A stretch of DNA of 64,000 nt from NCBI GenBank assembly GCA_949152475.1, contig OX424555.1:11116868-11180867 (forward strand). Reading direction: 5' to 3'. Of this stretch, positions 9,769-60,569 are shown in pieces. Within the stretch, counting starts at the first letter, position 1. The number at the start of each line of letters is the position of its first letter. Origin of the DNA: Terebella lapidaria. Lineage: Eukaryota; Annelida; Polychaeta; Terebellida; Terebellidae. The notes under the pieces are model-generated. The model did no database searches and was not told the origin of the DNA. It saw only the letters and a list, made by a program, of their open reading frames with translations. Made by a program: the position numbers and the translations under genes.

Positions 9769-9797
9769 TGAGTGGATAGTTTTGTCAAGTGGAAGTG

Positions 9798-11641: not shown

Positions 11642-11776
11642 CTGGATGACTCCATGTTGTGGAATTTATGTTCCATTGTATGCATTCAACGAGACATATG
11701 GTCTTTTCTTGATGAAGGAACAAGACTTCGATAACCCCGTAGAGTCAGCATATCCAGGGTACATCTTCTGGAATGT

Positions 11777-12384
11777 TCATAGTGGTAGTACATTTCCCTG
11801 TGCGCCTGTATCTAATTTGCACGTCATTTCTGCTGGTGCGGTGATTTCAGGCAGTTGGACATCGATAGTCACCAAGATGTCATTCTTCCCACCATTGTCA
11901 GTGTGGATAGCATCAAAGGACAGTTTATCGAAGCCTTCCTCCACACAGTCAGTTTGCACATTGTTTCTGCAGCCTCGTCGTCCACTGTTGTGTCTATTGC
12001 GTGATCTGGATCTGGAACATCTCCTGGGGTGCAATTTTTCCTTGGTATCTTGGCCTCATTTGTCTTTGTCAGACACTTTATGCAGCGCACTTGCCAGTGG
12101 CCTGTCTCACCAAAACTTGAACAATTGTCGTTGTATGCGGGGCATCTTCCATACTTGTGATCCTTTGCACAGTATTTGCAGTTCGTGCTTTGGGACCTTC
12201 TTTTCACTTTCCGGGACACAAAATCAACTTCGGCAGTTTCTGATATCGAACCTGCTTGTTCAAATGCTTTCAGGTGAGCTTCAGACGCCTCGTGTGTTCT
12301 GCATTTAATCAAAGCTTGATTTCTTTGACCTTGACGGGAAAAGTTCTGGGGAAACAAACAACTTCCCAGGCGTATTCTACTCAC
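11777..12384 (-). pseudogene. Gypsy Gag zinc knuckle and aspartic protease region
   Basis: Two overlapping minus-strand frames. 11869-12384 contains a cysteine cluster (CKYC, later CIKC, with H and C between) typical of Gag nucleocapsid knuckles. 11777-12034 contains MTCKLDTGAQGNVLPL, the DTG aspartic protease active site. The two readings are in different frames, from a natural Gag/Pol shift or decay. No clear capsid domain remains between this region and the PBS, so Gag seems short or truncated. Confidence 0.8.
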
Positions 12385-30756: not shown

Positions 30757-33700
30757 TTATTGCAGCATTTTCAAGATTTCTTTGCCATTTTGGATGGCAT
30801 CATTGGTGAGGTCTGCCTCTCCCTGAATGTTGGATATCAGAAGTTGTGCAAACAGAATCCTGGCCTTCGAGCGCTTTGCATAACCATCCGTGACTTTCGG
30901 CAAGATTGACTGATAACTTCTGTAAAAGTCCTCATGGAAATTGTTCTCCATTTCCAAGATGGTAAAATCCTGCTCGTATGGCCCATACACACCACAAGGG
31001 TCAAATGTCACTGGTGAAGAAGCAATCAGCGATATACATTTCAGACACATCCAACACATACTTCCGTAAATGTCTAAATTAGGATTTGTCTTATCAATAT
31101 TGGGGTATTCATTCAACCTTCATGTAAATCACTCTGGTATCACCTACCGACCGAATCTGGCACCTGGCCAACATTGATGAAGCAGAAATCGCCATGGAGC
31201 AAAGAGGGTTTCAATGATACCTCCTGGAATATCTTGTCCAGCTTTAGGCTGAGTTGTGACCAGATTTCCCCCAGTTGTCGATTACCTGTCTGAAAAAAGC
31301 ATGATATGATTTCTTAAAACACATGCATAAAATTATATCATTTAGATATCACAGCTGAATGCTTGGGTGTTTGAGAGGGATTCTGCGGAAATTACCTTTC
31401 GTTCAATGTCGTCAAATTGTGACTTCAACAACATCCTTCCAAAGTACTCCTGGAACACGTGTGCTAAATATGCTGAAGTATTACGTGAATTGGAATACAT
31501 GTACACTTAAACAAATATGACTCCAGGCTATTTCTTGTATGTTGAGTGTGATGTACAGCATAGTTTCACACGATGATCTCCATTCATCATATTATGGTAG
31601 ATCGTATACCTCCCAAGTATCGAGCCAGCAGGCTGGAGTGCAAAACGATGGGCCATAATATGTCGTGGTGTGGTATCCGAACTTGTCTACAGGTTTCGGT
31701 TTCTGATTCTGGTGAACAGAAGCAGAAGACTTCGTCACTTTGGACTTGGCCAGTGCCTCTGGGTTGTGAGCATGCAATCTAAATGGTATAGGTGAAATAT
31801 GATATACTAGTAGATGTTTTGGAGTATTTCTAAACAAGTGAGCATATATATATATACAGTTCCCATACCTTGCCATGCCGGCACCAAGTTCGCTCCATTT
31901 ATCTGTAATTTGTTGGAGGTCTATTAGATAGTCCATTATTAGAACTGCTCCTCCTCCAGCCATGCGTAATACCTGCTCAACCATTGAATAAAAACATATC
32001 GGTATGCGTATTCGGTAATTGGAAGTATCAGATTGTACCTTACTACTATACAATTCTCCAGTAATGACAGGTACAAGTGGTTTAGTGGTGTGTGTATATA
32101 TATACCCGGAGTGGTGTTGGAACTTTGATGGCTCCTGTTTCTTGTATCAACCTCAGACTGTCAACTTCAGAGGAAAACATATCGTAAGCCTGTAAACATA
32201 GCACCAAGGGTGCTGTAGCTTACCGGCAATCATGAGAAACGCAGAGTATTGATTTTCCAACATATACATTGTTACACTGATCTTGAACTCTAATCGTCAA
32301 AAAATGTTCGTAAATGTTGCTGGAAACACATTTTCTGTATGGACTATAGTACGAAATCAAATTACACATCACAAAGGTACATAAAGAGAATCTTATACAT
32401 GATTTTGAGAAAAACTGTCTGAATAGATTTAGACAAAATGGCCACCAAAGACAAATTTCATCGTTTTTGACCTTCCAAGGTCATTATAATAATGAGCATT
32501 TTATAGTCTAGGATCACCAACTCAAGTCGGTCTCTCTGACTGCACAATTATTATCCCCGGCAGACCTGTTCACTCCGACACATACTCAACCTCCTGGGAG
32601 GCATACAGCTCCATGTGCAGCCATTATTTGGCGCAGGAAACTGTGCATACACAATTGCCATCTCTGTCTATTGCCAGGTGCCCAATTATACTGTTTGGGT
32701 GAACAGCATACAGCAGCGCAGGTGAATGCACAAACAGGGTCACCCATCCATGTATTACCCACGCCTAGCGTTGCTTAACTTCGGTGATCTTGCGGGTACC
32801 GGTGTGTCATGCGCTACAAGGCCGTCATTGAAGGTCAAATTCAAGGTCATCACTCAAACCGCATTATATGATTTCCCATTTGAATGTGCCAATACTTAGG
32901 CTCTATTTTGAAGTCTTCTATGAGTTTACTCCGCACAGCTCCCATTATGAAGGAAAAATTGGGTGAAATTTTCTAAGTCCAAAAAATTTCTCAATGGCCA
33001 AAAAAATTTTTTTTTTGCTGGAAATGGCTCAAAACGAATAGTGACTTGATTTTGGACAAAAAAAATTTTTTTTGCTGACCCGTCAAAAATTTAAAATGGC
33101 CGCCACACGCAGACAGGCGATTCAAGTGTAACTAAACTTATATACGTCATAGATGTACATGAGGGGAATGTTTTAAAACACAAATCTCGAAACTGATCAC
33201 ACATTTTTTGAGAAAATGGCCATCAAGTCCAGAATTGGTCATTTTTCGACAAAAAAAGGTCGTTTTGACCTTCCAAGGTCATTGAAGGTCAAATTCAAGG
33301 TCATCACTCAAACCGCAATATATGGTTTCCCATTTGAATGTGCCATTACTTAGGCTCTATCTTCAAGTGTTCTATGAGTTTACTCTGCACAGCTCCCATT
33401 ATGAAGGAAAATTGGGTGAAATTTTGTAAGTCCAAAAAATTTTTCAATGGCCAAAAAAAAATTTTTTTTTTTTTGCTGGAAATGGCTCAAAACGAATAGT
33501 GACTTGATTTGGGACAAAAAATTTTTTTTTCGCCGACCCGTCAAAAAATCAAAATGGCCGCCACACGCAGACCGGCAATTCAAGGGCAACGAAACTTATA
33601 CACATCATAGAGGTACATGAGGGGAATGTTTTAAAACAAAAATCTCAAAACTGATCAGACAGTTTTTGAGAAAATGGCCATCAAGTCCAAAATTGGTCAT

Positions 33701-36700
33701 TTTTCGACAAAAAAAGGTCGTTTTGACCTTCCAAGGTCATTGAAGGTCAAATTCAAGGTCATCACTCAAACCGCAATATATGGTTTCCCATTTGAATGTG
33801 CCATTACTTAGGCTCTATCTTCAAGTGTTCTATGAGTTTACTCTGCACAGCTCCCATTATGAAGGAAAATTGGGTGAAATTTTGTAAGTCCAAAAAATTT
33901 TTCAATGGGCAAAAAAATTTTTTTTTTTTTTTTGCTGGAAATGGCTCAAAACGAATAGTGACTTGATTTGGGACAAAAAATTTTTTTTTCGCCGACCCGT
34001 CAAAAAATCAAAATGGCCGCCACACGCAGACCGGCGATTCAAGGGCAACGAAACTTATACACATCATAAAGGTACATAAGAGGAATGTTTTGAAACAAAA
34101 ATCTCAAAACTGATCAGACAGTTTTTGAGAAAATGGCCTCCAAAGTCCAAAATTGGCAATTTTTCGTCAAAAATGGCCGCCAAATCGGCAAAAACGATTC
34201 AATCAAAAAAATTAAAAAAACGTCTTTAGATACTGGCCCAAGGTATGTTCTGACAAATTTATGGGGAAATTCATCACGTCAAAAAAAAGTTACAGACCCG
34301 GACGGACGACGGACGGACGACGGACGACGGACGGACGACGGACGAAATACCACGACAATAGCTTATCGGCCCAAAGGGCCGGTAAGCTAAAAATGGAAGT
34401 ATGGTGAATTTCAAGCTCCCCAGTCTGTAGGCCTACAGTCCGTAAAATTGATAAACTTATGTCGTGCGCCCAGCGTTCGTTCAACGCCCGTCTCTCAGGC
34501 TATACTGTTTACTTGAATATCAATATAAATGTTTTTCATATATTAGGTTACCGAACCTTTGGTCCGATAACCTATTGGCATGGCGTTGCGTCCGTCGTCC
34601 GTCCGTACGTCCGTCCGACGTTAAATTTTTTATCTTTAAAGTTAACGATCGAATCTTTCTGAAATTTTGCACAAAAATGCCTAAAAATATTTTGAGAAGG
34701 AGGTATTTTCGTGTTTTTTGATTTTCGCAATTTTTTCAAAATGGCGGCCGTTTTTGTCGAAAAACGCTCAATTTTGGAATTTGACGGCCATTTTCTCAAA
34801 AACTGTCTGATCAGTTTTGAGTTTTTGGTTTCAAAAGATTCCCCTCATATACCTCTGTGATATGTATAAGTTTGGTTGCCCTAAATTCGCCGGTCTCCGT
34901 GTGGCGGCCATTTTGAATTTTTGGCAGGTCGGCGAAAAAATATTTTTTCGCCCCAAATCGCATTACTATCCATTTTGGGCCATTTCTAGGGCAAAAAAAA
35001 CTTTTCACCCTTTGAAAAAAATTTTGGACTTATTTTGGACTGTATAAATTTTCGGCACTTTTTCCTTCATAATGAGAGCTGTCCGGACTGTACTCATAGA
35101 ACGCTTGAAGATAGAGCTTAGAAATTGGCACTTTCAAAGGTGAAGTCATATATGGCGACTTGTGTGGTGACCTTGAATTTGACCTTGGATGACCTTGAAA
35201 GGTCAAAACAGCCATTTTAGGTCGAAAAATGCTTTTTTCCTTCATAATGGGAGCTGTCAGGACTGTACTCATAGAACGCTTGAAGATAGAGCTTAGAAAT
35301 TGGCACTTTCAAATGTGAAGTCATATATGGCGACTTGTGTGGTGACCTTGAATTTGACCTTGGATGACCTTAAAAGGTCAAAACAGCCATTTTGGGGTCA
35401 AAAAAGAGCTCATGTTTGCATTATGAACATATAGGAAGACATATATGGCACAACTAATGATGACCTTGAACTTGACGTCAGATGACCTTGAGTGCCAAAT
35501 GTCTGACTTGGAATGTGTAAATTGACCTGAGCGGCCTAAACGATTCCACCCAGATATATCTTTGTATTATGAACATATAGAATATCAAATGCCGCACACA
35601 TACATGTAATGGTGACATCGAAGTTCATACGGATGACCTTGATTGGTAAATCTCAAGGTCATATGTTTACACTGCGAACCTTGATTGGTAAATCTCAAGG
35701 TCTGTTGCCTGCCAATGCTGCCATGGCCAAACCAAAATTGTCCGGTAATCTATCTTAGCCTTTGGGCTAATTTTTTACAGTGCATTTCCTCATATATTCA
35801 GCCGATTGGGACATTTTGGGGGACTTCTGGGTAATCTCTCCCGAAATGGATGATTTTTTATGCATATGGAAGGTGAATTATGAAACTGAGCCAGGCGATA
35901 GAGAGTAGGTTGATATTACAGTGTGAGTCAAAAGATTGTGGAATAATGTATTGATGATGTATTATGAAATATCCATGGATGTACCACACATATAATGGCG
36001 TCCCTGAGAAGCCATTAATATGGGGCATCTGTCGGTGACCTTAAAGAATTATTAGGTAGATTTTTTTCGAACATCCAATGTTTCAGTTCCGGTGACCAAT
36101 TAGTTAAGGCACGCACGGTTGATAAATTGATTGGATCCCCGGATCATAACGTTGGCCCAAAATGTCAAGTTTCAAAGAAAATTAAATTGAGGTAGGTCTG
36201 CCTTTAGTCTGGTAGTAATGCTTTACGATTAAGCCATGAGATTCGTATAACTATTTGGAGACCTATGCATGGATCAGTCTGAGCGACGCAGAGCTCCGCG
36301 TCGCTCAGACTGTGAAAGGTTAGAATGATATAGCGATACATATACATGTAGTTTTGACTATTTCCCCATTCTGGTGTATCTGATTCATGTTGCAGATTTA
36401 TAATGGTGGTGATTAACCTGCGTAGGTTGGAAAATTGGGATGTTCATTTGATCAACGCCACTTTGGATCTCCGTACTGTTCTATAAATATATCTAAAACA
36501 TTATGATCTCACATAGCCGGATTGAAATAATATCACAAAAGCAACCCACGTCATTATGTGACCACGAAGGTTTTTTTTCTATTATATTGGCAAATGAACG
36601 GGGTAGGCCTAGATGGTTCATTCATATTCTACCAAGTCTGAGAGAGCAACGATCTCCAAGATCTACTTGTACGATACATTACATTACTAGTATGTTTCCG

Positions 36701-39227: not shown

Positions 39228-40451
39228 TCAGTTGTCGTATTCGTCCGATTTGTTGGAGAGCACGTAAATGAGGATCTCCTTGAGCTTGTCCGAGTTGGTC
39301 CTGGGCCAGCAGATCCAGGTGGCCACGATCTTGCGGAACTCGAAGGCGGCCACATAGCAGAGCGGGAACTTCGCGAACGAATAGAAGACCATGAAGAACG
39401 TGTAGAGGAACTCCGTGCGTTTAGGCATGACGTCGAAGCGCCTACTGCTGGGGGTCAGATGGCAGCCCGCTAGGAACTGGTCGAACTCCATGTGCTCCAC
39501 AGCCAAGCCGTACATGGCATTGCTGACGGCGTTACAAATGACGAAGATGACGATGTTGATGATGGTGATGCGGCTAGAGCGACCACTCTTGAAGACTCGC
39601 ACCAGCTTGAGATCGGGTATGCGGTTGATGATGGTTACGCGGTGGCGGAATCCACCTATGATGATCTTGGGTAGGATGAAGAAGGTGGCGACCCAGGGAA
39701 TCACTCGAAAGAAGATGTAATAGAGGAACTTCTCGTAGATCTGGAAGTCCTGGCTGCGGTAGATGTCGGAGAGACATACCTGTTTGTGGTAGTGTTTGAC
39801 GGTGGGGAAGTAGACGTCATGTCGGACGAACTTGAAGAAGTGGACCATGTGCACGAGGATGGTGGGGATGAAGATGGTGGTGATGATTTGGAGGCCCTTG
39901 TCGCGAGTTGAGTACTTCCAGAGGCGGTCAGGATGGTAGAAAACGAAGTACTGCTCGATAGCGAGGGCCAAAGTGTACCAGACCACCAGGCACTGCGCCA
40001 TCTCCGTGATCGGGTACATGCCAATGAAGAGTTTCTGCGACACGTCCAGGTAGTTCCAGAAGCGGTGGTCGTCAGGATGGTAGTGCGTGTACGAGAGCCA
40101 AGCTCGCGGCGACATCACAATCGATATACCGATCAGGAAAATGGTGTCCGATACCAAGATGGCACTGAAGAACATCGTGGAAAGGCAGCGCATCTCGGGA
40201 TGGTGGAAGACAAAGAAACCCAGGATGTTGCCGACACTGCCAACGAGCGTCATGAGCGGCAGGATGACGCCGTAGAAGGAGAAGAAGCCCAGCTTGTTCT
40301 GGAGCATGTCCTGGTCCAGCCCGGCCACGTCATGAAGGAAGTGGTTGGAGTTGCGCCATCGAGCGGCCAGGTCGTTCTCGACCACCTCGGCGGGCGCTGT
40401 GTCGTTGTCAGCCCGAGGGTATCGGTACACGAGCTCCACCAGCAAGTCCAT
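39228..40451 (-). CDS. Divergent seven-transmembrane receptor 1 (orphan GPCR)
   Basis: 407-aa membrane protein with seven hydrophobic segments (roughly residues 55-82, 88-112, 145-170, 185-206, 245-268, 298-320, 352-375) and a short cytoplasmic tail. Rhodopsin-class landmarks: GN in TM1 (VGSVGNILGF), Asp in TM2 (ILVSDTIFL), and a loop-2 Cys (QVCLSD). The DRY box is replaced by EQY (AIEQYFVFYHP) and TM7 has FAKFPLCY instead of NPxxY. A GRSSR motif precedes TM6. The chosen start at 40451 is in GCCATGG context; the open frame extends upstream to 40547, but a polypyrimidine-CAG acceptor at about 40505 suggests a spliced 5' leader. One sequon, NDT, is in the N-terminus. It is the paralogue of the receptors at 42.7-44.3 and 48.8-50.5 kb. 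The ligand is unknown; peptide or chemosensory roles are both possible. Confidence 0.85.
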   Translation of the reverse strand: MDLLVELVYRYPRADNDTAPAEVVENDLAARWRNSNHFLHDVAGLDQDMLQNKLGFFSFYGVILPLMTLVGSVGNILGFFVFHHPEMRCLSTMFFSAILVSDTIFLIGISIVMSPRAWLSYTHYHPDDHRFWNYLDVSQKLFIGMYPITEMAQCLVVWYTLALAIEQYFVFYHPDRLWKYSTRDKGLQIITTIFIPTILVHMVHFFKFVRHDVYFPTVKHYHKQVCLSDIYRSQDFQIYEKFLYYIFFRVIPWVATFFILPKIIIGGFRHRVTIINRIPDLKLVRVFKSGRSSRITIINIVIFVICNAVSNAMYGLAVEHMEFDQFLAGCHLTPSSRRFDVMPKRTEFLYTFFMVFYSFAKFPLCYVAAFEFRKIVATWICWPRTNSDKLKEILIYVLSNKSDEYDN

Positions 40452-42749
40452 GGCGCCAGCCGACTCACACCGCCTACAGTACTCAGAAACCGTCGCCCCG
40501 TCACCTGCTACGGTAAAAAGGCGGGGGATTGAAGGTGTGGTCAACATGCCTTTGAGAAATCCATAGGATCATTCGTGAATATATTCCATTATTTATTGTG
40601 GCACAATCTCATTTCCGATATTTTTGAAATCGTTGTTTCTGTTGTTTTACCTCGGAATTTTGGTCACGTTTTCATCCCTCCATAATCGTACTAAATAACT
40701 CACAATATGCTGCCCAGTGCGATTACATCTCTCTTTTGTGAACATCAATAAATCCATGGAATCAGCTGCCTTTTGGATCATTCACTTCTACTGCACACTG
40801 TTGCATGTACATGTACAGTGGCAAGTTTATTCTCAGCTACATGTACAATAGTAAAGACCCATGGTGTTTTATTTAAAGAAATATCACGTCAACACGTGGC
40901 GCTTGTGCTATTATAATTCTGATCGGAACCAGAAACACTATATGTCATCTACCGCCTGTGTTTGATACCTACCACACCTGTGAGCTACACAGACGGAGTC
41001 GCGGTCATTCCCCCGATGTATATTACAGTATAAATGCTAGATATATATATAGAGAGAGATATTTTTTTGTAGAATTATGTTAATGTTAAGAAATAAATCG
41101 ATTTTGGAGTATCTTACCTTAAATTCCACTGCACCAGGCAGTACACCGCAAGCAGTTTGCCACACACAGCGGTCCTCTCACCCGTTGTAAGTCAACAGCT
41201 TTCGAGATAGAAACTAAACGAGTTTACGGGGTTTTTTTTTTGCATTCACTTCAGTAAATGGTGATTGGCTCTATGTACATGTTTGTAGCTCTAGGCCTAT
41301 TATCGCATTGATTTTCAACTTTTCAAAACCAATGTTTAACGATTTCGTGTTTAGGTCAGTGAGTCAGTTATAAGTGACGGATCAAATACTCACAAGTGAC
41401 CCTCCTTGAGTGCAGTGTGTTTATTCCTCTGCTGAATTACCGGTACGTGATGAAGTTACAAACTTACTAATATAAATCACAACATGGGGTGAAAAGACAC
41501 ACAGCTGTTGAGTCTGACGCAAACATATATGACCTTTCAAATCCATCGATTTCACACTATAATTAATGGTTCCAAAACTTTAGGTGATCACACTGAGTCA
41601 TACAGTGTGGCTGTTTATTTGATATCGATTTATAGGCATCAATGTTGCAGATTCATTTGAGGAAAAATCCATGGTTGTATCAATATGGCATTTATCAAAC
41701 AGGCACACGAAGCCAGACGTACACGCACACACGTGCACAAAACGATAACGGACATCCCCAGGAACACAACTACTAGTATATATACTGCTCTTCGTCAGTT
41801 TTAAATAGTCACTTGCAATAAATTTCAAATTTCAAATCCCTCAAGTTTAAATTTCAAATCCCTCAATTTAGTCATCATGCATTTTATGCAAATAAACGCA
41901 ATCACAACAACATGATTCCAGATTATGAGTGTATTCCAAGATGCCACACGTTAGTTCGTTATTGAGTTCCTGTTCAATTGATATCCACCTTGAAATAATG
42001 TATCATTTTTTATGCAGGTTCACACACTCTACTCTTTGAACCACATTTGTACCAACATAACCCAGACTGGTATTGTCGTGTGAATGAAATGTATACCATA
42101 ATCATAATTGTTTTCTCCTTTTTCATGCAAAATTAATAACGAACGGGACGATTGGCGATAACCATGTCGAATTGAAATATGTCCCCGTTAGGATATAGCA
42201 TTTAATAGTAATATGTTTATTTCGGGCTAATCCATTACATACGTGATGAGCACTCTATTCAAACGTTATCAAATGGCGAAATAAATATTGTCACAGTTCC
42301 ATGCAAAACTGAAGAATCTATACTGAGACTCAAGTTTGTTTTCAAATGGTTAAAACTTGTGGGAAATAAATGTATCAACGAATTTCCCACCCGCAAGGCA
42401 AACACACACAAAAATGAACTGTACATGTTTCTCGCACACTAATGTGCCTCGTATTATGAGTACAATGCCGGGGAAACCCTGAATTCGAAACGTTCAGATA
42501 CTCAGTGCTGAGTCCAGATGCTGACTAGTGCTGAGATAAACCCATCTCCCACTCAAAACAATGCCATATGTCCATATCGTATCAATTTGTTGGTTTTGTA
42601 ATCACATTCCAACCAATAAATGTCGTGTAAAAGTATTATCGATCGGCTCATACATTGTTTCGATGTAGCCTCACCAACTATTCATCCCTCAAGTAGCTAC
42701 CCTGATCATGATGTAGTCGATCTAGCTGGATATTTCCGGGCATGTATGT
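40452..42749. other. Intergenic between receptors 1 and 2
   Basis: AT-rich. A TA/GA microsatellite is at about 41041-41060. A short duplication, TTTCAAATCCCTCAA, lies near 41827-41868. No exon is supported. Confidence 0.4.
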
Positions 42750-44305
42750 CTATATTTCTATGCCTGGTTCATCTTCCAGGTTGATAGCGGAATTGTAGAA
42801 ACTGTTGGTTTGTTTGGGCGGCGTGATGACAGCGGGCCTCACGATTACAGGATGCACTATGACGCTTGCAGACTGGTCATCTGGTAGAGTTTCTGCAGGC
42901 ACACGGTGTCTGTTGCTCATATCCCGGGGCGGAAGAGTCGATACGACGGTTATATTGCACTGAGAGTCGTGAGGTTTCTCATCTACAGTCTGTATCTTAG
43001 TTGAGTTAGTGCATGATTTACCAAATGTATGTATGGTACGACACACCCGGTGTGAGGCCGCCGAAGTTCTCGAGAGTATGGACACCAGAGACTCGCGGAA
43101 AGCCTTCGAAGAACATATACACATTGGGAATCGCAAAACAGACTGCACCATACAGCAACATATGTAAGCCAGTTCAAAGACGGGGTCCACATGCATGAAC
43201 CGTCTGTCTTGTGGCAAAACGCGACAGGCCTTGGGGTTCTCGGCGAAGTCAATAGTTTCTACAATGACAAGGTACACGAGGATGGACACACCCTCCAGGA
43301 CAACAAACATGGTTCCCATCGTAATCAGTAGGCCTCGCGAGCGGCCTCCGTTCAGGACCACGGCAACGTCTGCCGGGCTGAGATTTGCCTCGGTCTGGTC
43401 TAGGACGTTAGCAGGCTCCGCCCTGTGCTTGACCTTATAATAAATCAGCGACAAGCACCCGAGAGCGATCAGCCAGGGGAACACGAAGGACACGAAGACG
43501 TAGAGGTACTTGTCGTAGTTCTGCACGCTGTGGCGGCCGAAGGCGTCCGACAGACAGATCCGCTTGGCGATCAGTGCCTCGTAGTACATCTCATGCGTCG
43601 TCAGGCAGAAGTAGCACATCAGGTGGACGATTACTGTCAGGTTGAAGACTGTCATCAGGACCTTCGCCACGTTACCTCGCTTGGAGAACTCGAGCAGATA
43701 GCGGGGACTGGTCACGGAGAAGTAGTACTCTCCTATGTAGACCACAGTGTACCACGCTATCATCGAGTGACTGAGGCCGGCCAGCGGATACAGGAACACG
43801 TACCTGCAGGGCAGGAACAAGTATCACTGAAACAATTTTGAAATCATGCAATTATCTTAGGTCCATGCAATTATCTTATTAGTGTTCACAGGCTTACCGG
43901 TCAGTGGGCAAACATGCATTTTAAATAATTTCTGGTGCTACGTGCGCCTACTTACCTTTGTTGGATGCTGTTTACTTCGTTCAGAAACTCAGTAGAGAGG
44001 AGGTCGTGGAAGCGATGGTGTAGCCACATCGGTGGGAAATACATGGCGAAAATAGAGGCCATGCTTACGACGTCTGCGAGAGCGATCATCTGCATGATGA
44101 CTCCACTGAATCCCTTGAGTTTGGGGTGATGATAGACGAGCCAGGTGAGGAAGCCACCAGCCAGCCCCACTAGAGCCGTGATGGGTATGACAAGACCAAA
44201 CAAGGCGAAGCTGTACCGTCTGTAGTACCGGGCCATGTCGTCCAAGTCCCGCTTGTACTCCCGGACATCGTGCAGGGTACTGTTGTCCACCAACCACCCG
44301 TCCAT
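42750..44305 (-). CDS. Divergent seven-transmembrane receptor 2 (two exons)
   Basis: The exons are 44305-43956 and 43803-42750 on the minus strand. The donor is AACAAAG|GTAAGT and the acceptor CCCTGCAG|G; they join in phase 2 so that SIQQR runs into YVFLYPLAGL, giving 467 aa. Landmarks follow receptors 1 and 3: ALADVV in TM2, EYY for DRY (YIGEYYFSVTSP), RICLSD in loop 2, GGRSRG before TM6, and RFPMC for NPxxY. TM1 has AGG where the others have GN. The 110-residue tail is polar and ends DEPGIEI. The N-terminus MDGWLVDNSTLHDV has one NST sequon. The intron sits in the loop before TM3; the coding parts of the other two receptors lack it. Confidence 0.87.
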
Positions 44306-46704
44306 GTCCTAGAGCTAAGTGTGACTCCTGGTGTAGTCCTTACTCCTTAGTTTGGTCACCTACGGAGTCTCTAGAAACGTCAGGCAGGTTGGTTCAGGTA
44401 GGATGAGCAAGTGGCATGGATTGCCATGGATCCCTTGTAGCCTGTCCAAGACACCCATGTACTGAATGTAGTGTCATCCTCTCAAGGAATTGCTTGATTT
44501 CCAGATATTGCTGATTGCCTCATGTATCGATAGGATGCGGCTTTCAAGAGATTTCGATGCTTTCATGCAGAAAGTGACTTTCAAGCTCCAAAGGAGAAGA
44601 AACACTTCCTCTGTTGTTGTTTTTGGTACATCTCAAACCAAATATTTCCGATATCTATAAGCATACCGAAATGTACTGCTACGATGTTCTGAAAATATTT
44701 TATTGGCTTGGAGATGGGGTTCAGTCTGCGATTATGACTAGATAATACTATATTGCTATTTAAACTAGTAAGGGCAGAGAACAATTACATTTATCGCTAT
44801 CCCGTGAATGTGCCGCCATGTGAACTCTGTCTGACTGACCATTGTGACCCACTCCGGTGGCACCAGTAAACATGTGGGAGCAGTCTAACAATTGTCTGTT
44901 ATTTAGAAGATAATGGACGGAACTATGTATACGCTCGGTGTCAGTCGTGGTCACGTATTGTATAATTATTTTGACGACAACAATGCCATTTGCACATGTT
45001 TATTCTGGTAAAATTTTGCTGAAAACGGGCATCAACATACATTTTACATGTATCATATAAAGGTTTCTGGTGAAGTGTAAATAAAATATAGTTACACAAA
45101 CGCGTTATCCATTGACCTATACATTATATTATTGTGATACTACATGTATTACTTCCATGGCATACATGTATTTTGAAGTTTTAAACGGTTTAACGTAGTC
45201 CGCTACAAACATTGATGTAACGAAGAGTCACAATTTAAAAGTCATTTCTTGAATATTATCTCTTCAAAATGACCTATGTTATAGAGTAACGGACCAGCAT
45301 CTTAATACTGAAAAGAAAATAGGGGGTCACCGTGCTCGTTTCTTGTACATATTCGATCAAAATCACAAACATTTACCTAAAATTACATAAATTATGATGT
45401 TTTTGCCCATTTTTTGGTCCATATTCACATCTTGCATCGTGTTGCCATGTGAACGGATACGATGACCCCCTATTTCAGTTTCAGGATGCTGATCAGGTAC
45501 TCTATAAAATATGTCATTTTGAAGCTCTAGAATATGTTGGTACAGTTATTTATTTCAAAAAACTCCTTGACCCCCTCCCCTCACTGTTTCGAGCGGGCTA
45601 CCTTAACATTATCGCGAATGCCGTTCGACACATTATGTACGTACAGACATTCATACATATGGTCGTACAGACCATATCCGACTCTTGAATGATCTCAAAT
45701 GTTAGTTCTGTGAGATTAGCTTACACCTACACTCACATGAGATAGTAGGCCTATGTTCAATACCAAAAATACAAATGTATTATGCCAATACTAATTACAT
45801 AAGCCAACCTGGTCAATAGTTCATAATAATAACAGCTTAATAATTCATTTGCAGCATATTGTCTAGCTCTTTCTGTCAAAACCTAATTCCGTTACTTTTT
45901 AGATTACCGGCCTCTGGTCCGATATTGCCGTGGCGTTGCGCTGTTCGTCCGTCCGTCCGTTCGTCGTCTTCGTCGTTTTCAGAACTTTTGTACGAAGGAA
46001 CTAAAAACTATCCAACGGGGTGGTATATATGCAAATGAACTCATGTAGACAAAACAGTTATAGATACAGCTTTGTGTTCTGAGCATAAGCATATATGCGA
46101 AGGCATATACGGCACATCTTTTGGTAACCTTTGGTGACCTCGCTCACGTGTGATCTTGAGTGGTAAGTTTCAAGGTCGCGTCCTAACTGAAATGTGTAAA
46201 TTGACCTCTGCAAACGAAAATACTGCAAATAGAGCTTTAGAGTTTTATTCATGAAGTCACATATTGGTGAATCTTTTGATAGTCTTGAAGTTGACATCAA
46301 ATGATGCTGAGTGGTAAATCCGAACGTGATATCGGACATAAAATGTGTAAATTGGACTTTGCATACAAAACGGCTGTAGTTCAGGTTTGTATTACGTGCA
46401 TATGATGTCACATCCGGTGGATCTTTCGGTGACCTTGAAGTTGAACTAAAACTTTGAGTAGAAAGGTCACATCTTAACTGAATGTATAAATCCAACGGAC
46501 AGTAGAGCTTAGGAATCACCATGAGCATATGCACCGTAGAGACCTTGGGTTTGCCCTTCAATGAGCTTGATAGGTCAGCGTGACAATTGTAGGGAAAAAT
46601 TAGATTCAATTTTCATTCTTCAAATTTCAAAATTCATTCAATTTTCCATTACTGAACCCAAATGATATTGGTCGCACAAACAACGGGAGAGAGTGTGACT
46701 GAAA
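44306..46704. other. Intergenic, with a decayed HER copy at about 45900-46600
   Basis: At 45900-45970 a degenerate HER head is seen (AGATTACCGGCCTCTGG, GTCCGATATTGCCGTGGCG, then CCGTCCGTCCGTTCGTCG). CAAGGTCGCGTCC-type and GACCTTGAAGTTGA phrases run to about 46580 without a clean tail. The rest (44306-45895) has no recognised feature. Confidence 0.5.
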
Positions 46705-46780
46705 TTGTGTCGACTTTCCATTGATGCACAGTTTTTTTATTGTCTTGTGGCTTGTAAGCTGTCTGATAAACCATGGAAAC

Positions 46781-48117
46781 TACTTTTACATTATGAAAAC
46801 TGCAACACGTTCATTGTGTCTGACGCTGATGACTTTCTGAATGAGCGTTCGAACTGCTGGTCGGGTTTGTCTGAAAACTACAACACGTTCCTTGTGTATG
46901 ACTGTGACGACTTCCTGACTAAGCGTTCAAACTGCTGGTCGGATTTGTCTAAAAACTACAACACATTCATTGTGTCTGACTCTGGCGACTTTCTGACTGA
47001 GCGTTCGAACTGCTGGTCGGGTTTGCCTGAAAACGTTCATTGTGTCTGACTGTGACGACTTTCTGACCATAGACATAGAACACTGCCAACTCGTACTCTG
47101 TGACCTTGAGCTTGCGTCCAGAGGAAGAGGGGTACTTTATTTCCGGTTTGGCGTTTTCATGGAAAATTGAATTGTCAAAATGCGTCAAATATCGTACGTG
47201 ACATCATCACTCAGAAGATCGTCAAGATTGAACAATGGCAATACGACGTTATAGGTTAACAACGGAAGTGTAACTACCCTCTTCCTCTGACCCTTTGTGA
47301 CCTCAAGTTCAATAACTACAAACAGAGAGATTGATATCAGAGTTGGCAGTCCATCTCTGTTCTATGTCTCTCTGTTCTATGTCTATGTTTCTGACTGAGC
47401 GTTCGAACTGCTGGTCGGGTTTGTCTGAAAACTGCAACACGTTCCTTGTATCTGACTGTGACGACTGTCTGACGGAGCGTTCGAACTGCTGGTCGGGTTT
47501 GTCTGAGAACTACAACACGTTCCTTGTGTATGACTGTGACGACTTCCTGACTGAGTGTTCGAACTGCTGGTCGGGTTTGTCTGAAAACTGCAACACGTTC
47601 ATTGTATCTGACTCTGGCGACTTTCCGACTAAGCGTTCGAACTGCTGGTCGGGTTTGTCTGAGAACTACAGCACGTTCCTTGTGTATGACTGTGACGACT
47701 TCCTGACTGAGTGTTCGAACTGCTGGTCGGGTTTGTCTGAAAACTACAACATATTCATTGTGTCTGACTCTGGCGACTTTTTGACTGAGCGTTCGAACTG
47801 CTAGTCGGGTTTGTCTGAAAGCGTTCATTGTGTCTGACTGTGACGACTTCCTGACTGAGTGTTCGAACTGCTGGTCGGGTTTGTCTGAAAACTACAACAC
47901 ATTCATTGTGTCTGACTCTGGCGACTTTCTAACTGAGCGTTCGAACTGCTGGTCGGGTTTGTCTGAAAACTACATTACGTTCCTTGTGTATGACTGTGAC
48001 GACTTCCTGACGGAGCGTTCGAACTGCTGGTCGGGTTTGTCTGAAAACTGCAACACGTTCATTGTATCTAACTCTGGCGACTTTCCGACTAAGCGTTCGA
48101 ACTGCTGGTCAGGTTTG
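46781..48117. repeat. 78-bp minisatellite, about 13 units, interrupted by a TIR insertion
   Basis: The marker TCGAACTGCTGGTCGGG recurs at 46849, 46927, 47005, then 47403, 47481, 47559, 47637, 47715, 47793, 47863, 47941, 48019 and 48097. Spacing is 78 bp except for two units shortened to 70 bp. Since 78 is 26 codons, plus-strand frames (46705-47049, 47331-47804, 47830-48120) read SNCWSGLSEN, NTFLVYDCDDF or NTFIVSDSGDF, LTER repeats. The minus strand is open too (47337-47828). Units with YDCDDF and SDSGDF alternate, suggesting a 156-bp higher-order unit. No start context, splice sites or signal peptide support a gene. Confidence 0.9.
47060..47395. mobile_element. 320-bp TIR element with 8-bp target duplication (hAT-like) inside the minisatellite
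   Basis: The insertion 47068-47387 has ends CATAGACATAGAAC and GTTCTATGTCTATG (14 bp, perfect), with longer imperfect arms (CTGCCAACTC, TGACCTTGAG, CAGAGGAAGAGGG and inverses). TTTCTGAC flanks it on both sides (47060-47067 and 47388-47395). The array unit normally has a single TTTCTGACTGAG, so this is a true duplication. Removing the insert plus one copy restores a 70-bp unit identical in length to the one at 47793. Non-coding. Confidence 0.8.
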
Positions 48118-48120
48118 TGA

Positions 48121-48797
48121 AAGGTCGCGGCAGTTATCATGACAATCATAATGTGATGGCATCTGCGGATAATCCTAGTTTTGTGTTACATGGTAATGTG
48201 TATCTGGTACTATGTAGCTATATATATATATATACACATATATACACGAGTTTCTGAGTACCAGCATCTAAATAACATTATTTATGTAAGATCTGAAACA
48301 TGTGTTTCCGCCGTTTGTATGCGTTTACTGGAGATATTGCACACCAGCATATGATAGTATCATCTCCGATAAAGCTACATTTGCATCCCATCCTGCGTGA
48401 ACATCGCAGGGGAATAAGTTTAGTGTTTACGCTAGTGGCACAGCGGTATTTGTTTATAGTGCGGTGTGTGTCAAAGCAAGCGCTTGACAGAACACGTTAT
48501 GCGGGATATTGATGTGTTCCCGATCTCTCGGCGCTATACATGTAGGTTAGTTTGGAGCGTGGGCTGTGCAAGACGCTTCGACAGTTGGTGCAAAAATACC
48601 GACTTCTTCTCTGACGCTTATCATACATACGAGAATAATTCCTAGGGACTAGTTTTTGCTCTCTCCAGGTGCAGCGTTTACATGTACACAAACACAATGT
48701 CTCGCAGCTAACTCGAGGGACTTCAATACCGTGATCGAAGTGTCGAGCTGCTGTGGTGGCTTCGTCGCAAGCCCCAGATGTGCCACCGGTGTGCATC
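48121..48797 (+). other. 5' region of receptor 3
   Basis: A TA microsatellite lies at 48218-48232. A possible 3' splice site (TTGCTCTCTCCAG) at about 48668 may mark the start of the exon bearing the receptor start codon; otherwise non-coding. Confidence 0.4.
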
Positions 48798-50504
48798 ATG
48801 TCCACGGAACCTGACTACCAGGCGATATGCCGGGCGGACATCGGCGAGATGGCTTACAACAACATCTTCGTGCGTCCTCTGTTCGTACATTTCATGGCCG
48901 TGGGCGTGCCTGTCGTGTCTGGCCTCGGTATCATCGGTAACGCCCTGGTCGTGTGGGTCAACCATCACCGCAAGCTGACCGGTCTATCCATTCTACTCCT
49001 TAACGCTCTCGTGCTCGCGGACTTGATGCTGATGAGTAGCCTGATCCTGATGTACCTGCCCCGGGGGCACCTTGCCGCTCACTTCACCCCCGAGGACTGT
49101 GCCAAGGGCAACAAGGAGTTTTGGCGCTCTCTGGACTACGCCCAGCGTATGTACGTCGTAGTTCACCCGTACATGGACGCCTCGGGATGTCTCGTCATCT
49201 GGTCTGCCTTCATCCTGGTACTCGAGCTGTACGGTGTTTTCTTCCACCCTGAACGCATGGCCAGGATGACCAAGTCCAGGAGCACGGGACTCAAGATTCT
49301 AGTAACTGTATTTAATCTGATCATGGTCTTGTCGCTGATCCACTTCTTCAAATTCGTCAGGCGGGAAGCCTTGTACCACCATATGGAACACAAAAAGATC
49401 TGCCTCTCGGATGTGTACTTGGATGACGCCTACCAGCGGTACGACGTCTACATGTACTTCGGCGGACTATCCATCTTCCCCTGGGTGGCCATGGTGCCGT
49501 TGCTGATCCGGATCACTGTTGAAGTGTGCGAGCGTCGCCGGGACCCCAGTCTGCTGGCCTTCTCGCCCCGGGTCCAGGTGATTATGCTGCTCAAGGAGGG
49601 CCGCTCTAGGCGCACGGTCTTCACCATTTCCATCCTCTTCCTCTCGTGCTACGCCGTAATCAACTCCATCGATATCTACGCCCTGTACATGGCCAAACAC
49701 CACGAGCAAACTGGCCCCTGTTACCTGGTCCCAATGGACAGGCGCTACGCTCTCATACACCACGGCAACTACATGGAGCTCGTGAGGGTTGTTTTTATAC
49801 TTATTTATTCCGCTACAAAATTCCCAGTTTGCTACTGTTCGGGGAAGGTGTTTCGTGAGATTTTCAACACTTCGATAATTCGTGGTTCCAGGGGAGTGAA
49901 ACTATACTGGAGAGGTGTATGGGAGAGAAGGTTGAAGAGCAAATCTTCGTCGGATTTATCATTGATGCTAGAAAACATAAATCAAAACACTCAAAACAAT
50001 CCACCGCCCGGTGTCGCCAATCTCAAAACAGCCATCGACCACTACAGCCAAATCTATCCGCTACCTCAGAGTCGCACGCTACCTGGTGAAGACCAATCTC
50101 ATCCCACCCAGGGGCCCAACAACTCCCGAGATGTGCTCTCTCTTTATCCCAGTCAGTTTTCTACATACCGTCCTCGGTCTTCTGCGACCCATTACACCTA
50201 TCAGCCCTCGAGTCTCCCTAGACGGAGGGATGACCATGAAGAAGTGCCCCCACCACCTACGGGACAGCCGTCAACCATCCCCAGGACACGGCGCCCGTGG
50301 GTGCCAGTCTACGGGGCGTGGACAGCCCCGGGGGCCGAGGGCGAGTGGCTGGGTCCCTGGCCGTCACCGAGTCTCCTTCTGTCCCCGAGCTCCACCATCG
50401 ACCACAAGCCACCGAGGCGACCAAAGGACGCTGCCACCAAACCCGTCGTCTTGAGGCCGTACGTCTACGCCAAACCTAATGCCATATTCGAGACCTCGAT
50501 ATAG
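48798..50504 (+). CDS. Divergent seven-transmembrane receptor 3 with long proline-rich tail
   Basis: 568 aa in a single coding exon; the first in-frame ATG is at 48798 (the frame is open upstream but lacks ATG). Landmarks: TM1 GLGIIGNALVVWV, TM2 LVLADLMLM, TM3 end ELYGVFFHP in place of DRY, loop-2 KKICLSD, GRSRR before TM6, and TM7 TKFPVCYCSGKVFR in place of NPxxY. Identity to receptors 1 and 2 is strongest at HFFKFVRRE, CLSDVY and FP-C. The roughly 190-residue tail after TM7 is rich in Pro, Ser and Arg (PPPPTGQPS) and is unlike the tails of the other two. It is transcribed towards the CARD-LRR gene; an AATAAA is at 51074-51079. Ligand unknown. Confidence 0.87.
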   Translation: MSTEPDYQAICRADIGEMAYNNIFVRPLFVHFMAVGVPVVSGLGIIGNALVVWVNHHRKLTGLSILLLNALVLADLMLMSSLILMYLPRGHLAAHFTPEDCAKGNKEFWRSLDYAQRMYVVVHPYMDASGCLVIWSAFILVLELYGVFFHPERMARMTKSRSTGLKILVTVFNLIMVLSLIHFFKFVRREALYHHMEHKKICLSDVYLDDAYQRYDVYMYFGGLSIFPWVAMVPLLIRITVEVCERRRDPSLLAFSPRVQVIMLLKEGRSRRTVFTISILFLSCYAVINSIDIYALYMAKHHEQTGPCYLVPMDRRYALIHHGNYMELVRVVFILIYSATKFPVCYCSGKVFREIFNTSIIRGSRGVKLYWRGVWERRLKSKSSSDLSLMLENINQNTQNNPPPGVANLKTAIDHYSQIYPLPQSRTLPGEDQSHPTQGPNNSRDVLSLYPSQFSTYRPRSSATHYTYQPSSLPRRRDDHEEVPPPPTGQPSTIPRTRRPWVPVYGAWTAPGAEGEWLGPWPSPSLLLSPSSTIDHKPPRRPKDAATKPVVLRPYVYAKPNAIFETSI

Positions 50505-51624: not shown

Positions 51625-54600
51625 TCAGACAAAGGAGTGCTTAGTCCCGGAGAATTCTCCTGTCATGGAGCCGACGTCGCTATCCGTTTGTGAGTCCTGC
51701 GCGTCATCAAAGTTATTGCCCCAGAGCAGCACCTTGAGGTCCTTGTTCTGCTGGAGAACCTCGCACAGGATCTCGTACATGAGCTGGATGGGGTCTGAGG
51801 CCGGAGAGTGGGACATGCTCCGTCTGAGGGTAGACGTCAGAGGAGACAGCGGGGCCGTGGGGGTGACGGGAGAGCGGGGACTGACGGGGGAGAAGGACGG
51901 GAGCGGTGGCGAGTGGGGGGATGGGATGGTCAGGGTCAGGGGCGTCATGGAGCAGGAACTCATCGAGGACTCCGTTGGGGAGGAAGGCACGGACGGGAAT
52001 TCCGAGTGTGAGAGGCACACCTCGGGCATGCTCCTCAGGGTCTGCCATGTGTCTGAATAGCGCGGGTGCTTGCCGATCTTATTGTAGCACAGCTTTAGGG
52101 TCGTCATGGTCGTGTTGAAACGGAGAGCGTCTAGCAGGCGGAGGAAACCCTTGTTAGCGATATTGCACATGTTCATGCAGAGAGTTTGCAAGGCTTGGTT
52201 GTACTTGAGCCCCTCACTGATCGCTTGGGCACCCGAGTCACCAATGCCGTTCATGCTCAGATCCAGGGTTCTCAGGGACATGTTGGTTTTCAGGGCTCGT
52301 GCTAGAGCACCGCAGCTCTCTCCTGTTATCCCACAGTTCTCCAAGTTGATACCCTTCAGGGTTCTGTTCAACAACAGTACCTCAGCCAGAACGAAAATGC
52401 TCTCATCCTTGATCTTATTCCTACTGATATCCACGAAATTAACTCTAGCGTTTCTCTTGAGTCCCTTGAATATGCACCTTGCTCCATACGGAGTGATATT
52501 GTTGCAGCGCATCCGCAGTTTACACAAGGAAGTGTTGAGAGTCAGACACCGAGAGAGACTCTCACATGATTCCTCACTCATCTCGTTGAAACCCAGATCC
52601 AGCTCAACTACAGAGAGACTCTTGGCTAATCCGAACACAAGCTGACTACATCCCACTCCACAGAGACCTGTGCTAGTCACGTTAAGTCTCCGTAACGTCG
52701 GGTTTTTAGCTATGGCCTGGGCGAGGTGATACGAACCCTCGTCACCTAGGCGATTCAGACGAATATCCAGGTGAATGAGACTCCTGTTCTTCTCCAAGGC
52801 CTCGGCTAGGAGGGCCACGTGTTCAGCAGTATCGATGTGGTTTTTGACTAGAGAGAGTTCGCGGACACATGGGTAGTGCTGCAGGATGTTGGCTATGGTA
52901 TGGAGGCCTTCCTGTATGAGGCACTGGTTATACAGGCTCACGGATATCATGGGAACGTATCGGTCAGTCTCTTCTAGAATCTCAAAATCCTCACTCGTCA
53001 TCGACAGAGGTCGCTTACGTCTCTTCATTCCAGCAATGTCACGGACACTCCGCTTTTGCCCGGTATCCCTGTTGATGTATGATATCTCGATCTCGAAGCT
53101 GCCCGAGTCTGTCATGATATCCATGTCCTCCAGATTGTTATTACACGTGCATGTCAAACATGACTGTCCACTGTGTGACTTCCCACCAGATGTGCGTTTC
53201 TTGGATGTGGCGACCTGTACCAAGGCGTCTAAGACTTGCAGGAAGTCTGCCAAGTAACTCTGAGATCCTACAGCTCTAAGCGCCGTACAGAACACCATGA
53301 ACTCATCCTGTCCTTTGGCTGTGACCACGTCTATCAGATAGTCACAGCGAACTTGTCTGTTCCTCATGCGTAGGATCTGAGCCTCTGTGTTTCTGTTTAT
53401 GACGCCCTTGTTACAGAGGTAGGCCAGCACTGGCTCCGGCTCCAACTCGAAGGCCAGGATCTCCTTGGTCTGAGCCAGGATGTTGTAGACCTTCGACTCA
53501 TCCTCTCCCGATGGATTATAACGCTTGATCATGGGCGAGGCAGTCCTACTCTCATATCGATCGAAAGATTGTGACAACGTCATGTCCAGTGCGTTCGTGA
53601 CGTCGACGATGGAGGACTTGAGCGTGAGGACATCGTCAGACCGTAGTGACGGCGTCGGCGTCCTCAGTAAGGTGTCTGTACTTGGTGTCAGGCGGTTGTC
53701 AACGTTGACGCTGCGCATGCGTGGCGGTTTGGGCGGCGGTTTGCGCCTGAGCACGCATTGCGGAGAGGACGGTGTGCTGTATGAATGGTTGTCCAGGTTG
53801 GAGGAGGTGTTGGACGAAAACCCGGACTCGGGGCCAAGCGTGCTGGTGCTGTAGCCGCCCCGCCGGGGGTTGGGAACCCGCATGGACATCGAGCGAGGTG
53901 CCGTGCCGTACGGGGACGACATCAGAAAGTCGTCGCTAGGCGTGCCCTGGTAACCATTGTAGTAGCCGTGTCTCTCGATAGGGGGCGCCAGTGGCATCAT
54001 GCCATTGAACCTCGGCGAGGACAACAACTGGTCGTGTGAGGCCGCCTTGCCTGCAACAAACCAAATACATGTATGTAAAGAGGCTGGGAGCATTTCATAT
54101 TTTATATACTAAACTTTTTACTGTCATCATAATGGTATTCCTACATGCACATGTATACGGTAATAGTCATTTTCAAACATGTAACGATTGACAACAACTC
54201 ATATATTATATTAATCTAAACCAGCATATTCCCAGTTATAAATAATCAAAGCTGTCTGGAATATAAGCATAAGAAGCGAATTCTCCCGGTGTGCCTTGTG
54301 TTAATTACACGGTGTGGAGGATTATAATAGACCCTGATGATTGGATGCAGGAGAGATACATGTACAGAGTACGAGAGATATGACTACAGCCCTCCAACAA
54401 CAACTGAACTCCACAGATCGTGATTTATCCTTGCACGAACTTTTTGTTGATGGTAGGGTTATTGTTTATGTATGATATCAACCGAGAATGTACACATGAG
54501 CAGGTCGTCCTTGAATAGCGCACACAAAGTGAAGGCAGTGCAAACAATGCCATGTGTTCTGTATCGTCCCGGAATATCCAGATGTCAAAACTAGTCATTC

Positions 54601-59800: not shown

Positions 59801-60457
59801 TTGTTTTGACACGCTCCGTTCGAGCGTGCGTTGCCACGGCGACGCATTGTAATTTACGCTCCAGTAAACTATAACAATGGATCGATTTAACCTCGCGTGC
59901 GCCCTGCAGTTTCTGGTGTATTATATATACACTGGAAGCGACTCGTTCGAGGAGATTGTCCAAGATCGAGACTAGGACGCACACGAGGCTCGCCATGAGC
60001 TTTGTGTTCCCTGGGTCTGAGTAGTGGGCTCCTAGAGCCCTGGGGACGATTTCCGTGGGGAGGCCCGGGCTGGGAGAGACGAGTTGCTGACTCGGGGGCC
60101 TTCGGCCCTGTGGATCGCCAGCTCTCTCCCTTCCCGGGACATGTGACAGAGGCTCTGGCCAGCATGTCGGACTGTACGGGGTTCCGTCCCCGAGGCAGAC
60201 CGCGGCTCGCCAGGCCCCGCCAGTTAACACCGTGGTGATGAACCAGTTTCTGAACGGTGTCCGTAGGCCTGGGAGTGTCGGGTGGGCTGTTACCTGGTTA
60301 CCGTTAATGATGAAGTAGTTACCGTGTCCGCCGCGACCTCCGGTGAGCGGCCCTGCCGCGAGGATCCGGAATAGCGGATGCGCGTCCGCAAGGACTCGGA
60401 TGAGAGAGGACTATCCTCGAGGATCCCGAAGAGCGGACGGTAGTCAATAACTTTACA
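59801..60457 (+). repeat. 5' LTR of a GC-rich Gypsy element (about 657 bp)
   Basis: It starts TGTTTTGACACGCTCC and ends AATAACTTTACA directly before the PBS. A TATA-like TATTATATATAC lies at 59919-59931. Near the 3' end, GAGCGG/GGATCC motifs recur (60352-60440), shared with the solo LTR at 14579. The start is placed by TG...CA and by homology with that solo LTR, so it may shift by a few bases. Confidence 0.8.
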
Positions 60458-60458
60458 T

Positions 60459-60476
60459 TGGTGCCGTGACCAGGAT
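60459..60476 (+). other. Primer binding site of the Gypsy element
   Basis: TGGTGCCGTGACC begins one base after the LTR end, complementary to a CCA-ending tRNA 3' terminus. The same type of PBS is common in metazoan Gypsy elements. Confidence 0.8.
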
Positions 60477-60569
60477 CAGTCCGACAGTGTTCCATCGCAG
60501 CCTACCGTCACAGTGTTGTCGCCTCCTTAGTCCCTGGGGATCGCCCGCTCCTCAAGGACGTCTCGAAAA

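What the first reader, a model, noticed from the sequence alone, without database searches (positions are those of the whole stretch)
39228..50504. Cluster of three paralogous orphan 7TM receptors with a shared non-canonical motif set
All three replace DRY with E-x-Y (EQY, EYY, ELY) and NPxxY with (K/R)FPxC. All keep a loop-2 'CLSD' cysteine and a GRS(S/R)(R/G) motif before TM6. Co-variation of these micro-switches across three diverged paralogues (different tails, one with an intron) argues for a functional, lineage-specific subfamily with altered G-protein activation. Seen: motifs and gene order. Known: DRY/NPxxY are the canonical switches of class A receptors. Inferred: subfamily status and function.
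Basis: partly seen in the sequence, partly recalled or inferred. Interest (0 to 1): 0.75.

Follow-up and report, generated by a model that had tools for sequence, protein, structure and literature searches.

The report
Three receptor genes with rewired switches
Three neighbouring animal genes encode old, intact cell-surface receptors of the rhodopsin class in which several of the standard 'on-switch' residues have been replaced in the same way, so they probably pass on signals by a modified route; it is an unusual branch of a well-known protein class rather than a new kind of protein.

Summary

Two corrections. E-x-Y keeps E3.49 and Y3.51; only R3.50 is lost. (K/R)FPxC is [KR]7.48-F7.49-P7.50-x-C7.52, and Tyr7.53 survives in genes 1 and 3.

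Beyond the finding: C3.25, S3.39, W4.50, W6.48 and P6.50 are also gone; W3.41, F4.50, F7.49, the GRS triplet and an ECL3 cysteine are invariant in five sequences. The only extracellular cysteines common to all are in ECL2 and ECL3, which suggests an ECL2-ECL3 disulfide in place of the canonical bridge.

Best reading: an undescribed, divergent class A subfamily with rebuilt activation machinery. Altered G-protein coupling is inferred. Lineage restriction was not testable. Verdict: new variant of a known kind, interest 0.42.

The parts
39228..40547 (-). Gene 1, 439 aa intronless 7TM receptor (E198-Q-Y, K393-F-P-L-C-Y, GRSSR, CLSD); short tail of about 20 aa after helix 8
43956..44305 (-). Gene 2 exon 1 (N-terminus, TM1, TM2, ECL1)
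   Evidence: donor AAAG|GTAAGT; tblastn similarity to genes 1 and 3
43804..43955 (-). Gene 2 intron, 152 bp, GT-AG, phase 2, at the ECL1/TM3 junction
   Evidence: the alternative upstream acceptor gives a broken frame
42750..43803 (-). Gene 2 exon 2 (TM3 to C-terminus; E142-Y-Y, R341-F-P-M-C-I, GRSRG, CLSD); spliced protein 467 aa
48798..50504 (+). Gene 3, 568 aa intronless 7TM receptor from ATG 48798 (E143-L-Y, K341-F-P-V-C-Y, GRSRR, CLSD); about 200-aa Ser/Thr/Pro-rich tail ending -ETSI

Best explanation
The locus holds three intact, anciently duplicated members of an undescribed, divergent class A (rhodopsin-like) GPCR subfamily. Shown: paralogy, synonymous sites at or near saturation with retained protein similarity, class A fold by prediction, a weak sequence link to peptide-type class A receptors, and a shared rebuilt core. 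Kept: D2.50, E3.49, Y3.51, P5.50, F6.44, F8.50-R8.51. Lost: C3.25, S3.39, R3.50, W4.50, W6.48, P6.50, N7.49. New and invariant in five sequences: W3.41, F4.50, R6.32 within GRS, S7.45, F7.49, C7.52, an ECL3 Cys; 7.48 is always K or R. Inferred: they are plasma-membrane receptors for extracellular, perhaps peptide, ligands. The ligand pocket is braced by an ECL2-ECL3 disulfide. Activation does not use the R3.50 arginine cage/ionic lock or the CWxP toggle, so classical G-protein activation is weakened or replaced by contacts from E3.49/Y3.51 and the basic GRS end of TM6. Gene 3 and its close relative P0001 also anchor to a PDZ scaffold through a conserved -E-T-x-I C-terminus.
Against: P0002 passes Pfam Srw, so the group may not be a separate family. 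TM6 and TM7 register rests on weak alignments (beta1AR stretch i-Evalue 0.093; TM7 stretch score -2.4 and -2.2 where listed), although F6.44 and the P7.50-to-F8.50 spacing agree. P0002 has A7.50, and Y7.53 is lost in 2 of 5. Disulfide: gene 1 has two N-terminal Cys without an ECL1 Cys; gene 2 has two more Cys (C180, C183) at the extracellular end of TM4, just inside the border I set by hand, so its ECL2 Cys could have another partner; ECL2 is modelled with pLDDT under 50 in part (residues 188-199); no coordinates were available. P0001 may be a paralogue rather than an orthologue, since its species is unknown. The g1-g3 fourfold identity (0.44) lies somewhat above saturation (0.34). No expression, ligand or coupling data. 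Five sequences only.
Confidence: 0.72

Rival explanations
1. Rapidly evolving chemosensory receptors: a divergent offshoot of the Srw/peptide-type class A group, as in the mollusc and nematode chemoreceptor expansions, that still couples to G proteins. The switch changes are tolerated drift rather than a rebuilt mechanism.
For: Clustered and mostly intronless genes; P0002 passes Pfam Srw. PMC3963977 (abstract and passages) reports srw-like genes in molluscs, insects and Schistosoma, closest to the peptide/SOG subfamilies. PMC2700072 (passages) gives clustered, largely intronless Aplysia receptors.
Against: The copies are old and few in this window (3; no further copy by profile search of its six-frame translation); the rest of the genome was not searchable, so a large family elsewhere is not excluded. 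F4.50, F7.49 and W3.41 are invariant in 5 of 5, which looks like constraint and not drift. The Aplysia receptors keep the arginine (ERC), and those authors cite work in which loss of the arginine side chain abolishes G-protein signalling.
Confidence: 0.35
2. Atypical, G-protein-uncoupled scavenger or arrestin/PDZ-scaffold receptors, analogous to human C5L2 (C5aR2), which has DLC in place of DRY and NPLMF in place of NPxxY.
For: Same kind of double lesion; gene 3 and P0001 even share Leu at 3.50 with C5L2. PMC2697321 (abstract start and passages): C5L2 lacks productive G-protein coupling, and mutation of Leu132 to Arg is cited there as raising coupling to G-alpha-16. Gene 3 and P0001 end -ETSI / -ETHI, and 10 of their last 21 residues are identical although the mid-tail aligns poorly, fitting a class I PDZ ligand (consensus recalled).
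Against: Gene 1 has only about 20 residues after helix 8 with 2 Ser/Thr and no PDZ-like end, poor for arrestin or PDZ partners. A whole family is changed here, not one member beside a coupled sister. E3.49, Y3.51 and F6.44 stay invariant.
Confidence: 0.3
3. Degenerating genes: the motif loss reflects pseudogenisation.
For: Several of the most conserved class A residues are lost.
Against: Long intact frames, clean splice sites, synonymous sites at or near saturation with retained protein identity, and outside relatives with most of the same substitutions.
Confidence: 0.03

Closest known systems
Class A (rhodopsin-like) GPCRs of peptide type (neuromedin U receptor 2, AT1R, CCR2, KISS1R, GHSR)
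   Same: 7TM fold; D2.50, E3.49, Y3.51, P5.50, F6.44, P7.50 (4 of 5), F8.50-R8.51; ERY aligned with ExY
   Different: No C3.25, R3.50, W4.50, W6.48, P6.50 or N7.49; genes 1-3 match no Pfam model
7TM_GPCR_Srw (PF10324) and srw-like receptors of protostomes (PMC3963977; abstract and passages seen)
   Same: P0002 matches the Pfam model above its gathering score (27.5 against 22.2 bits)
   Different: Genes 1-3 and P0001 do not match it
[quoted passage not shown] passages seen)
   Same: Divergent, intronless, mostly no BLAST relatives, remnant class A motifs
   Different: PROF1 groups I-III have D[RK][CM], DR[LV] or D[RS]C at TM3 and [NS][FG]..[YF], [ND]F..[YF] or N[FI]..[ML] at TM7 (its Table 3): mostly Arg3.50 and Asn7.49 are kept there, where this group keeps E3.49, Y3.51 and (4 of 5) P7.50
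Aplysia candidate chemoreceptors AcCRa-c (PMC2700072; passages seen)
   Same: Clustered, mostly intronless rhodopsin-like genes
   Different: AcCRs have ERC, with the arginine kept
C5L2 / C5aR2 (PMC2697321; abstract start and passages seen)
   Same: Natural loss of R3.50 (Leu) and altered TM7 motif; reported not to couple to G proteins
   Different: Single vertebrate complement receptor; N7.49 and P7.50 kept; no sequence relationship tested

Membership tests
Class A (rhodopsin-like) GPCR | Class A 7TM fold | tested here: met
Class A (rhodopsin-like) GPCR | Significant sequence relationship to class A members | tested here: met
   Five-sequence profile finds NMUR2 at 5.4e-4 and 22 distinct PDB sequences, all class A receptors, below 0.01. 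Weak and mostly in TM1-TM2; gene 3 alone gets only E 4.9 and none of genes 1-3 a Pfam hit
Class A (rhodopsin-like) GPCR | Canonical [DE]R[YFH], CWxP and NPxxY | tested here: not met
   E-[LQY]-Y; no W6.48 or P6.50; F7.49. Not strictly obligatory for the class (recalled)
Class A (rhodopsin-like) GPCR | C3.25-C45.50 disulfide | tested here: not met
   3.25 is Tyr/Phe in 5 of 5. Some accepted class A members also lack it (recalled)
7TM_GPCR_Srw (PF10324) | Match above Pfam gathering score | tested here: not met
   0 families for genes 1-3 at E<=10; met only by the outside relative P0002
PROF1 | TM3 D[RKS]x and TM7 [NSD][FGI]..x as in Table 3 of PMC3261222 | tested here: not met
   Genes 1-3 have E[QYL]Y and FPxC; motifs; no PROF1 sequence was aligned
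Aplysia AcCR chemoreceptors | ERC at TM3 | tested here: not met
   E[QYL]Y; no AcCR sequence was aligned
Atypical uncoupled receptors (C5L2-like) | Ligand binding without G-protein activation | not testable with these tools
   Needs a cell assay; only the loss of R3.50 was seen
   Organism unnamed; the genome search unanswered ten times; only two relatives, no taxa

The most novel reading that the evidence does not exclude
A class A GPCR subfamily with a wholly re-engineered activation core that is under constraint. It lacks the arginine cage, the tryptophan toggle, the proline kink of TM6, the sodium-site Asn/Ser and the near-universal TM3-ECL2 disulfide. It is instead built on W3.41/F4.50/F7.49, an acid at 3.49 facing a basic GRS cap of TM6 (a lock of reversed polarity), and an ECL2-ECL3 disulfide, yet it signals.
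Probability: 0.18. Interest if true: 0.72.

Novelty: new variant of a known kind. Interest (0 to 1): 0.42.

Why it matters
R3.50, W6.48, P6.50, N7.49 and the TM3-ECL2 disulfide are taught as the shared machinery of class A receptors. An old, intact subfamily without all of them, with its own invariant replacements, is a natural experiment on which parts of the switch are needed. It can be tested by simple swaps in a laboratory cell line. It also shows a practical gap: genes 1-3 hit no Pfam model, so annotation that relies on such models would miss them.

Tried and rejected
Pseudogenes: rejected. More copies in the window: none; a profile search of all stop-free frames of 25 or more codons finds only the four known exons, next hit E 3.5. 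Membership in Srw, PROF1 or AcCR: see Membership tests. A buried D2.50-K7.48 salt bridge was considered as a replacement for the sodium site. I did not adopt it because 7.48 does not normally face 2.50 (recalled) and no coordinates could be measured.

Searches that led nowhere: the profile search of the protein library returned only P0001 (it did not even recover P0002), and the P0002 search only itself. Viral contigs (141 pattern hits, 0 relatives) and prokaryote genomes (65 pattern hits, 0 relatives), as expected for an animal gene. In the ten paper searches I saw titles and abstract starts of capped listings and passages of five papers; none described a receptor family with ExY plus FPxC. 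Two of the ten asked about C5aR2 and about disulfides (the latter found no paper). The library is open-access only, so this does not show that the family is absent from print. P0002's place among genes 1 and 2 is unresolved: two of the three topologies tested are not rejected. A fold match to any particular receptor family is not claimed: rows within 1 Z are tied.

They weaken the ECL2-ECL3 disulfide argument, and I lowered the novel reading from 0.20 to 0.18 for that reason.

Full report
What is there. The window looks like animal DNA (inference): a spliced gene with GT-AG intron, a Rac-like GTPase ORF and a CARD-LRR protein, and retroelement remnants. The finding's interval holds three receptor genes. 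Gene 1 is 39228-40547(-), 439 aa. Gene 2 is 44305-43956 plus 43803-42750(-), 467 aa after removal of a 152-bp GT-AG intron at the start of TM3. Gene 3 is 48798-50504(+), 568 aa. The gaps between them are 2.2 and 4.5 kb, and gene 3 faces the other way. A profile search of the six-frame translation of the window finds no further copy.

Real and old. Pairwise BLASTP gives E 4e-55, 1e-28 and 4e-29. In the 324 gap-free core columns the three share 84, 97 and 93 identical residues per pair (g1-g2, g1-g3, g2-g3). Identity at fourfold-degenerate third positions is 10/37, 20/45 and 12/38 (0.27, 0.44, 0.32) against 0.30, 0.34 and 0.27 expected at saturation: at or near saturation for two pairs and somewhat above it for g1-g3. 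GC3 is 0.67-0.81. Together with intact frames far longer than in shuffled sequence, this points to functional genes kept by purifying selection. A formal dN/dS against an orthologue was not possible, because only protein was available for the relatives.

Relatives. In a library of 5.8 billion predicted proteins, gene 3 found two: P0001 (547 aa, 53% identity over the searched region) and P0002 (460 aa, 38%). P0001 pairs with gene 3 (ultrafast bootstrap 99) and shares its very C-terminus: 10 of the last 21 residues, ending -FETSI / -FETHI. If P0001 comes from another species, gene 3 was already separate from genes 1 and 2 before that split; its species is not given, so orthology is likely but not shown. 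The position of P0002 is not resolved: the best tree groups gene 1 with gene 2 (65), and the tree joining P0002 to gene 1 is not rejected. Two further searches added nothing.

Switches in register. ExY aligns gap-free with ERY of NMUR2 (that stretch alone scores 6.4 bits) and DRY of beta1AR. With beta1AR as ruler (weak, i-Evalue 0.093 for the stretch; TM7 lies in a separate stretch of negative score) and generic numbering recalled, the five sequences read as follows (order g3, P0001, P0002, g1, g2). 1.50 N, N, D, N, G; 2.50 D in 5 of 5; 3.25 Y/F, never Cys; 3.39 V/T/V/V/I; 3.41 W in 5 of 5; 3.49 E in 5 of 5; 3.50 L, L, Q, Q, Y; 3.51 Y in 5 of 5; 4.50 F in 5 of 5; 5.50 P in 5 of 5; 6.30 E, E, G, S, G; 6.31-6.33 GRS in 5 of 5; 6.44 F in 5 of 5; 6.48 Y, H, H, N, E; 6.50 V, V, M, V, V; 7.45 S in 5 of 5; 7.48 K in 4 and R in 1; 7.49 F in 5 of 5; 7.50 P in 4 of 5; 7.52 C in 5 of 5; 7.53 Y in 3 of 5; 8.50-8.51 FR in 5 of 5. 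So three kinds of position can be told apart: canonical and kept; canonical but replaced by a new constant (F4.50, F7.49); and released (3.50, 6.48, and in part 6.50). Seven of 14 switch columns are invariant against 36 of 324 overall (P 2.3e-4; the 14 were chosen by me as the usual list, and the five sequences are not independent).

Cysteines. Three are invariant in all five: one in ECL2, one in ECL3, and C7.52. Gene 3, P0001 and P0002 each add one N-terminal and one ECL1 cysteine, and gene 2 lacks both; gene 1 lacks the ECL1 one but has two N-terminal ones, which fits less well. By the borders I set, gene 2 has no other extracellular cysteine than those of ECL2 and ECL3, but C180 and C183 sit at the outer end of its TM4 and could be reachable. 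With no Cys at 3.25, the simplest pairing is ECL2-ECL3 in all, plus N-terminus-ECL1 in three. This is inferred; no distances were available and part of ECL2 is modelled with low confidence.

How it probably works. Inferred steps: an extracellular ligand, perhaps a peptide given the relatives, is bound by a pocket braced from ECL2 to ECL3. The signal passes through P5.50/F6.44. At the cytoplasmic end there is no R3.50 to leave E3.49 and enter the G protein, so coupling should be weak, absent, or carried by E3.49/Y3.51, the ICL2 proline and the basic GRS cap of TM6. Tails differ strongly (about 20, 100 and 201 residues after helix 8 in genes 1, 2 and 3). Only gene 3 and P0001 end in a class I PDZ-like sequence, gene 2 ends -IEI, P0002 -TYC, and gene 1 has nothing of the kind. 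Downstream partners have probably diverged between the paralogues.

Comparison with the literature (seen as passages unless stated). C5L2 lacks DRY (DLC) and NPxxY (NPLMF) and does not couple productively (PMC2697321). PROF1 of flatworms mostly keeps the residues this group has lost (PMC3261222). fwRhods are another flatworm orphan set, five of 18 in Fasciola without any identifiable domain (PMC6114109). Aplysia chemoreceptors keep the arginine (PMC2700072). Srw-like genes are reported from molluscs and insects and placed closest to peptide/SOG-type receptors (PMC3963977, abstract and passages). Divergent, sometimes domain-less class A families in invertebrates are thus a known phenomenon, which limits the surprise. 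The particular combination here was not seen in the listings of ten paper searches of an open-access library.

Verdict. Observation confirmed with corrections to the register. Interpretation partly supported: subfamily likely, function and lineage open. A new variant of a known kind.

Noticed in passing
46794-48118: Two arrays (46794-47067 and 47388-48118) of a 78-bp minisatellite, the second with 156- and 304-bp higher-order periods, between genes 2 and 3; 78 is a multiple of 3, and long stop-free frames occur on both strands.
   Followed up: no
51625-54093 (-): ORF of 822 codons next to gene 3 with CARD (E 4.2e-8) and leucine-rich repeats (E 2.6e-23) and no other kind of Pfam domain: a CARD-LRR protein without a NACHT match.
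   Followed up: no
32708-32829 (-): Full-length Rfam 5S rRNA match (42.8 bits, gathering 38) that ends beside a 458-bp, 3-copy tandem repeat at 32824-34173; its single-strand fold is no better than shuffles (z 0.11), so it may be a pseudogene or a 5S-derived repeat.
   Followed up: partly
8608-12384 (-): Decayed retroelement: integrase zinc-binding, partial integrase core and reverse transcriptase matches in two of several ORFs.
   Followed up: no
60001-64000: Block of 64% G+C in a window otherwise at 35-49%; it holds an intact 738-aa ORF with a CCHC-like zinc-knuckle motif near its end but without a Pfam match, gag-like by eye.
   Followed up: no
50439-50504 and 42750-42854: C-terminal block shared in part by gene 3, P0001 and gene 2 (R-P-x-V ... 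N-x-F in gene 2) within otherwise poorly alignable tails; gene 2 continues ten residues further to -IEI.
   Followed up: partly
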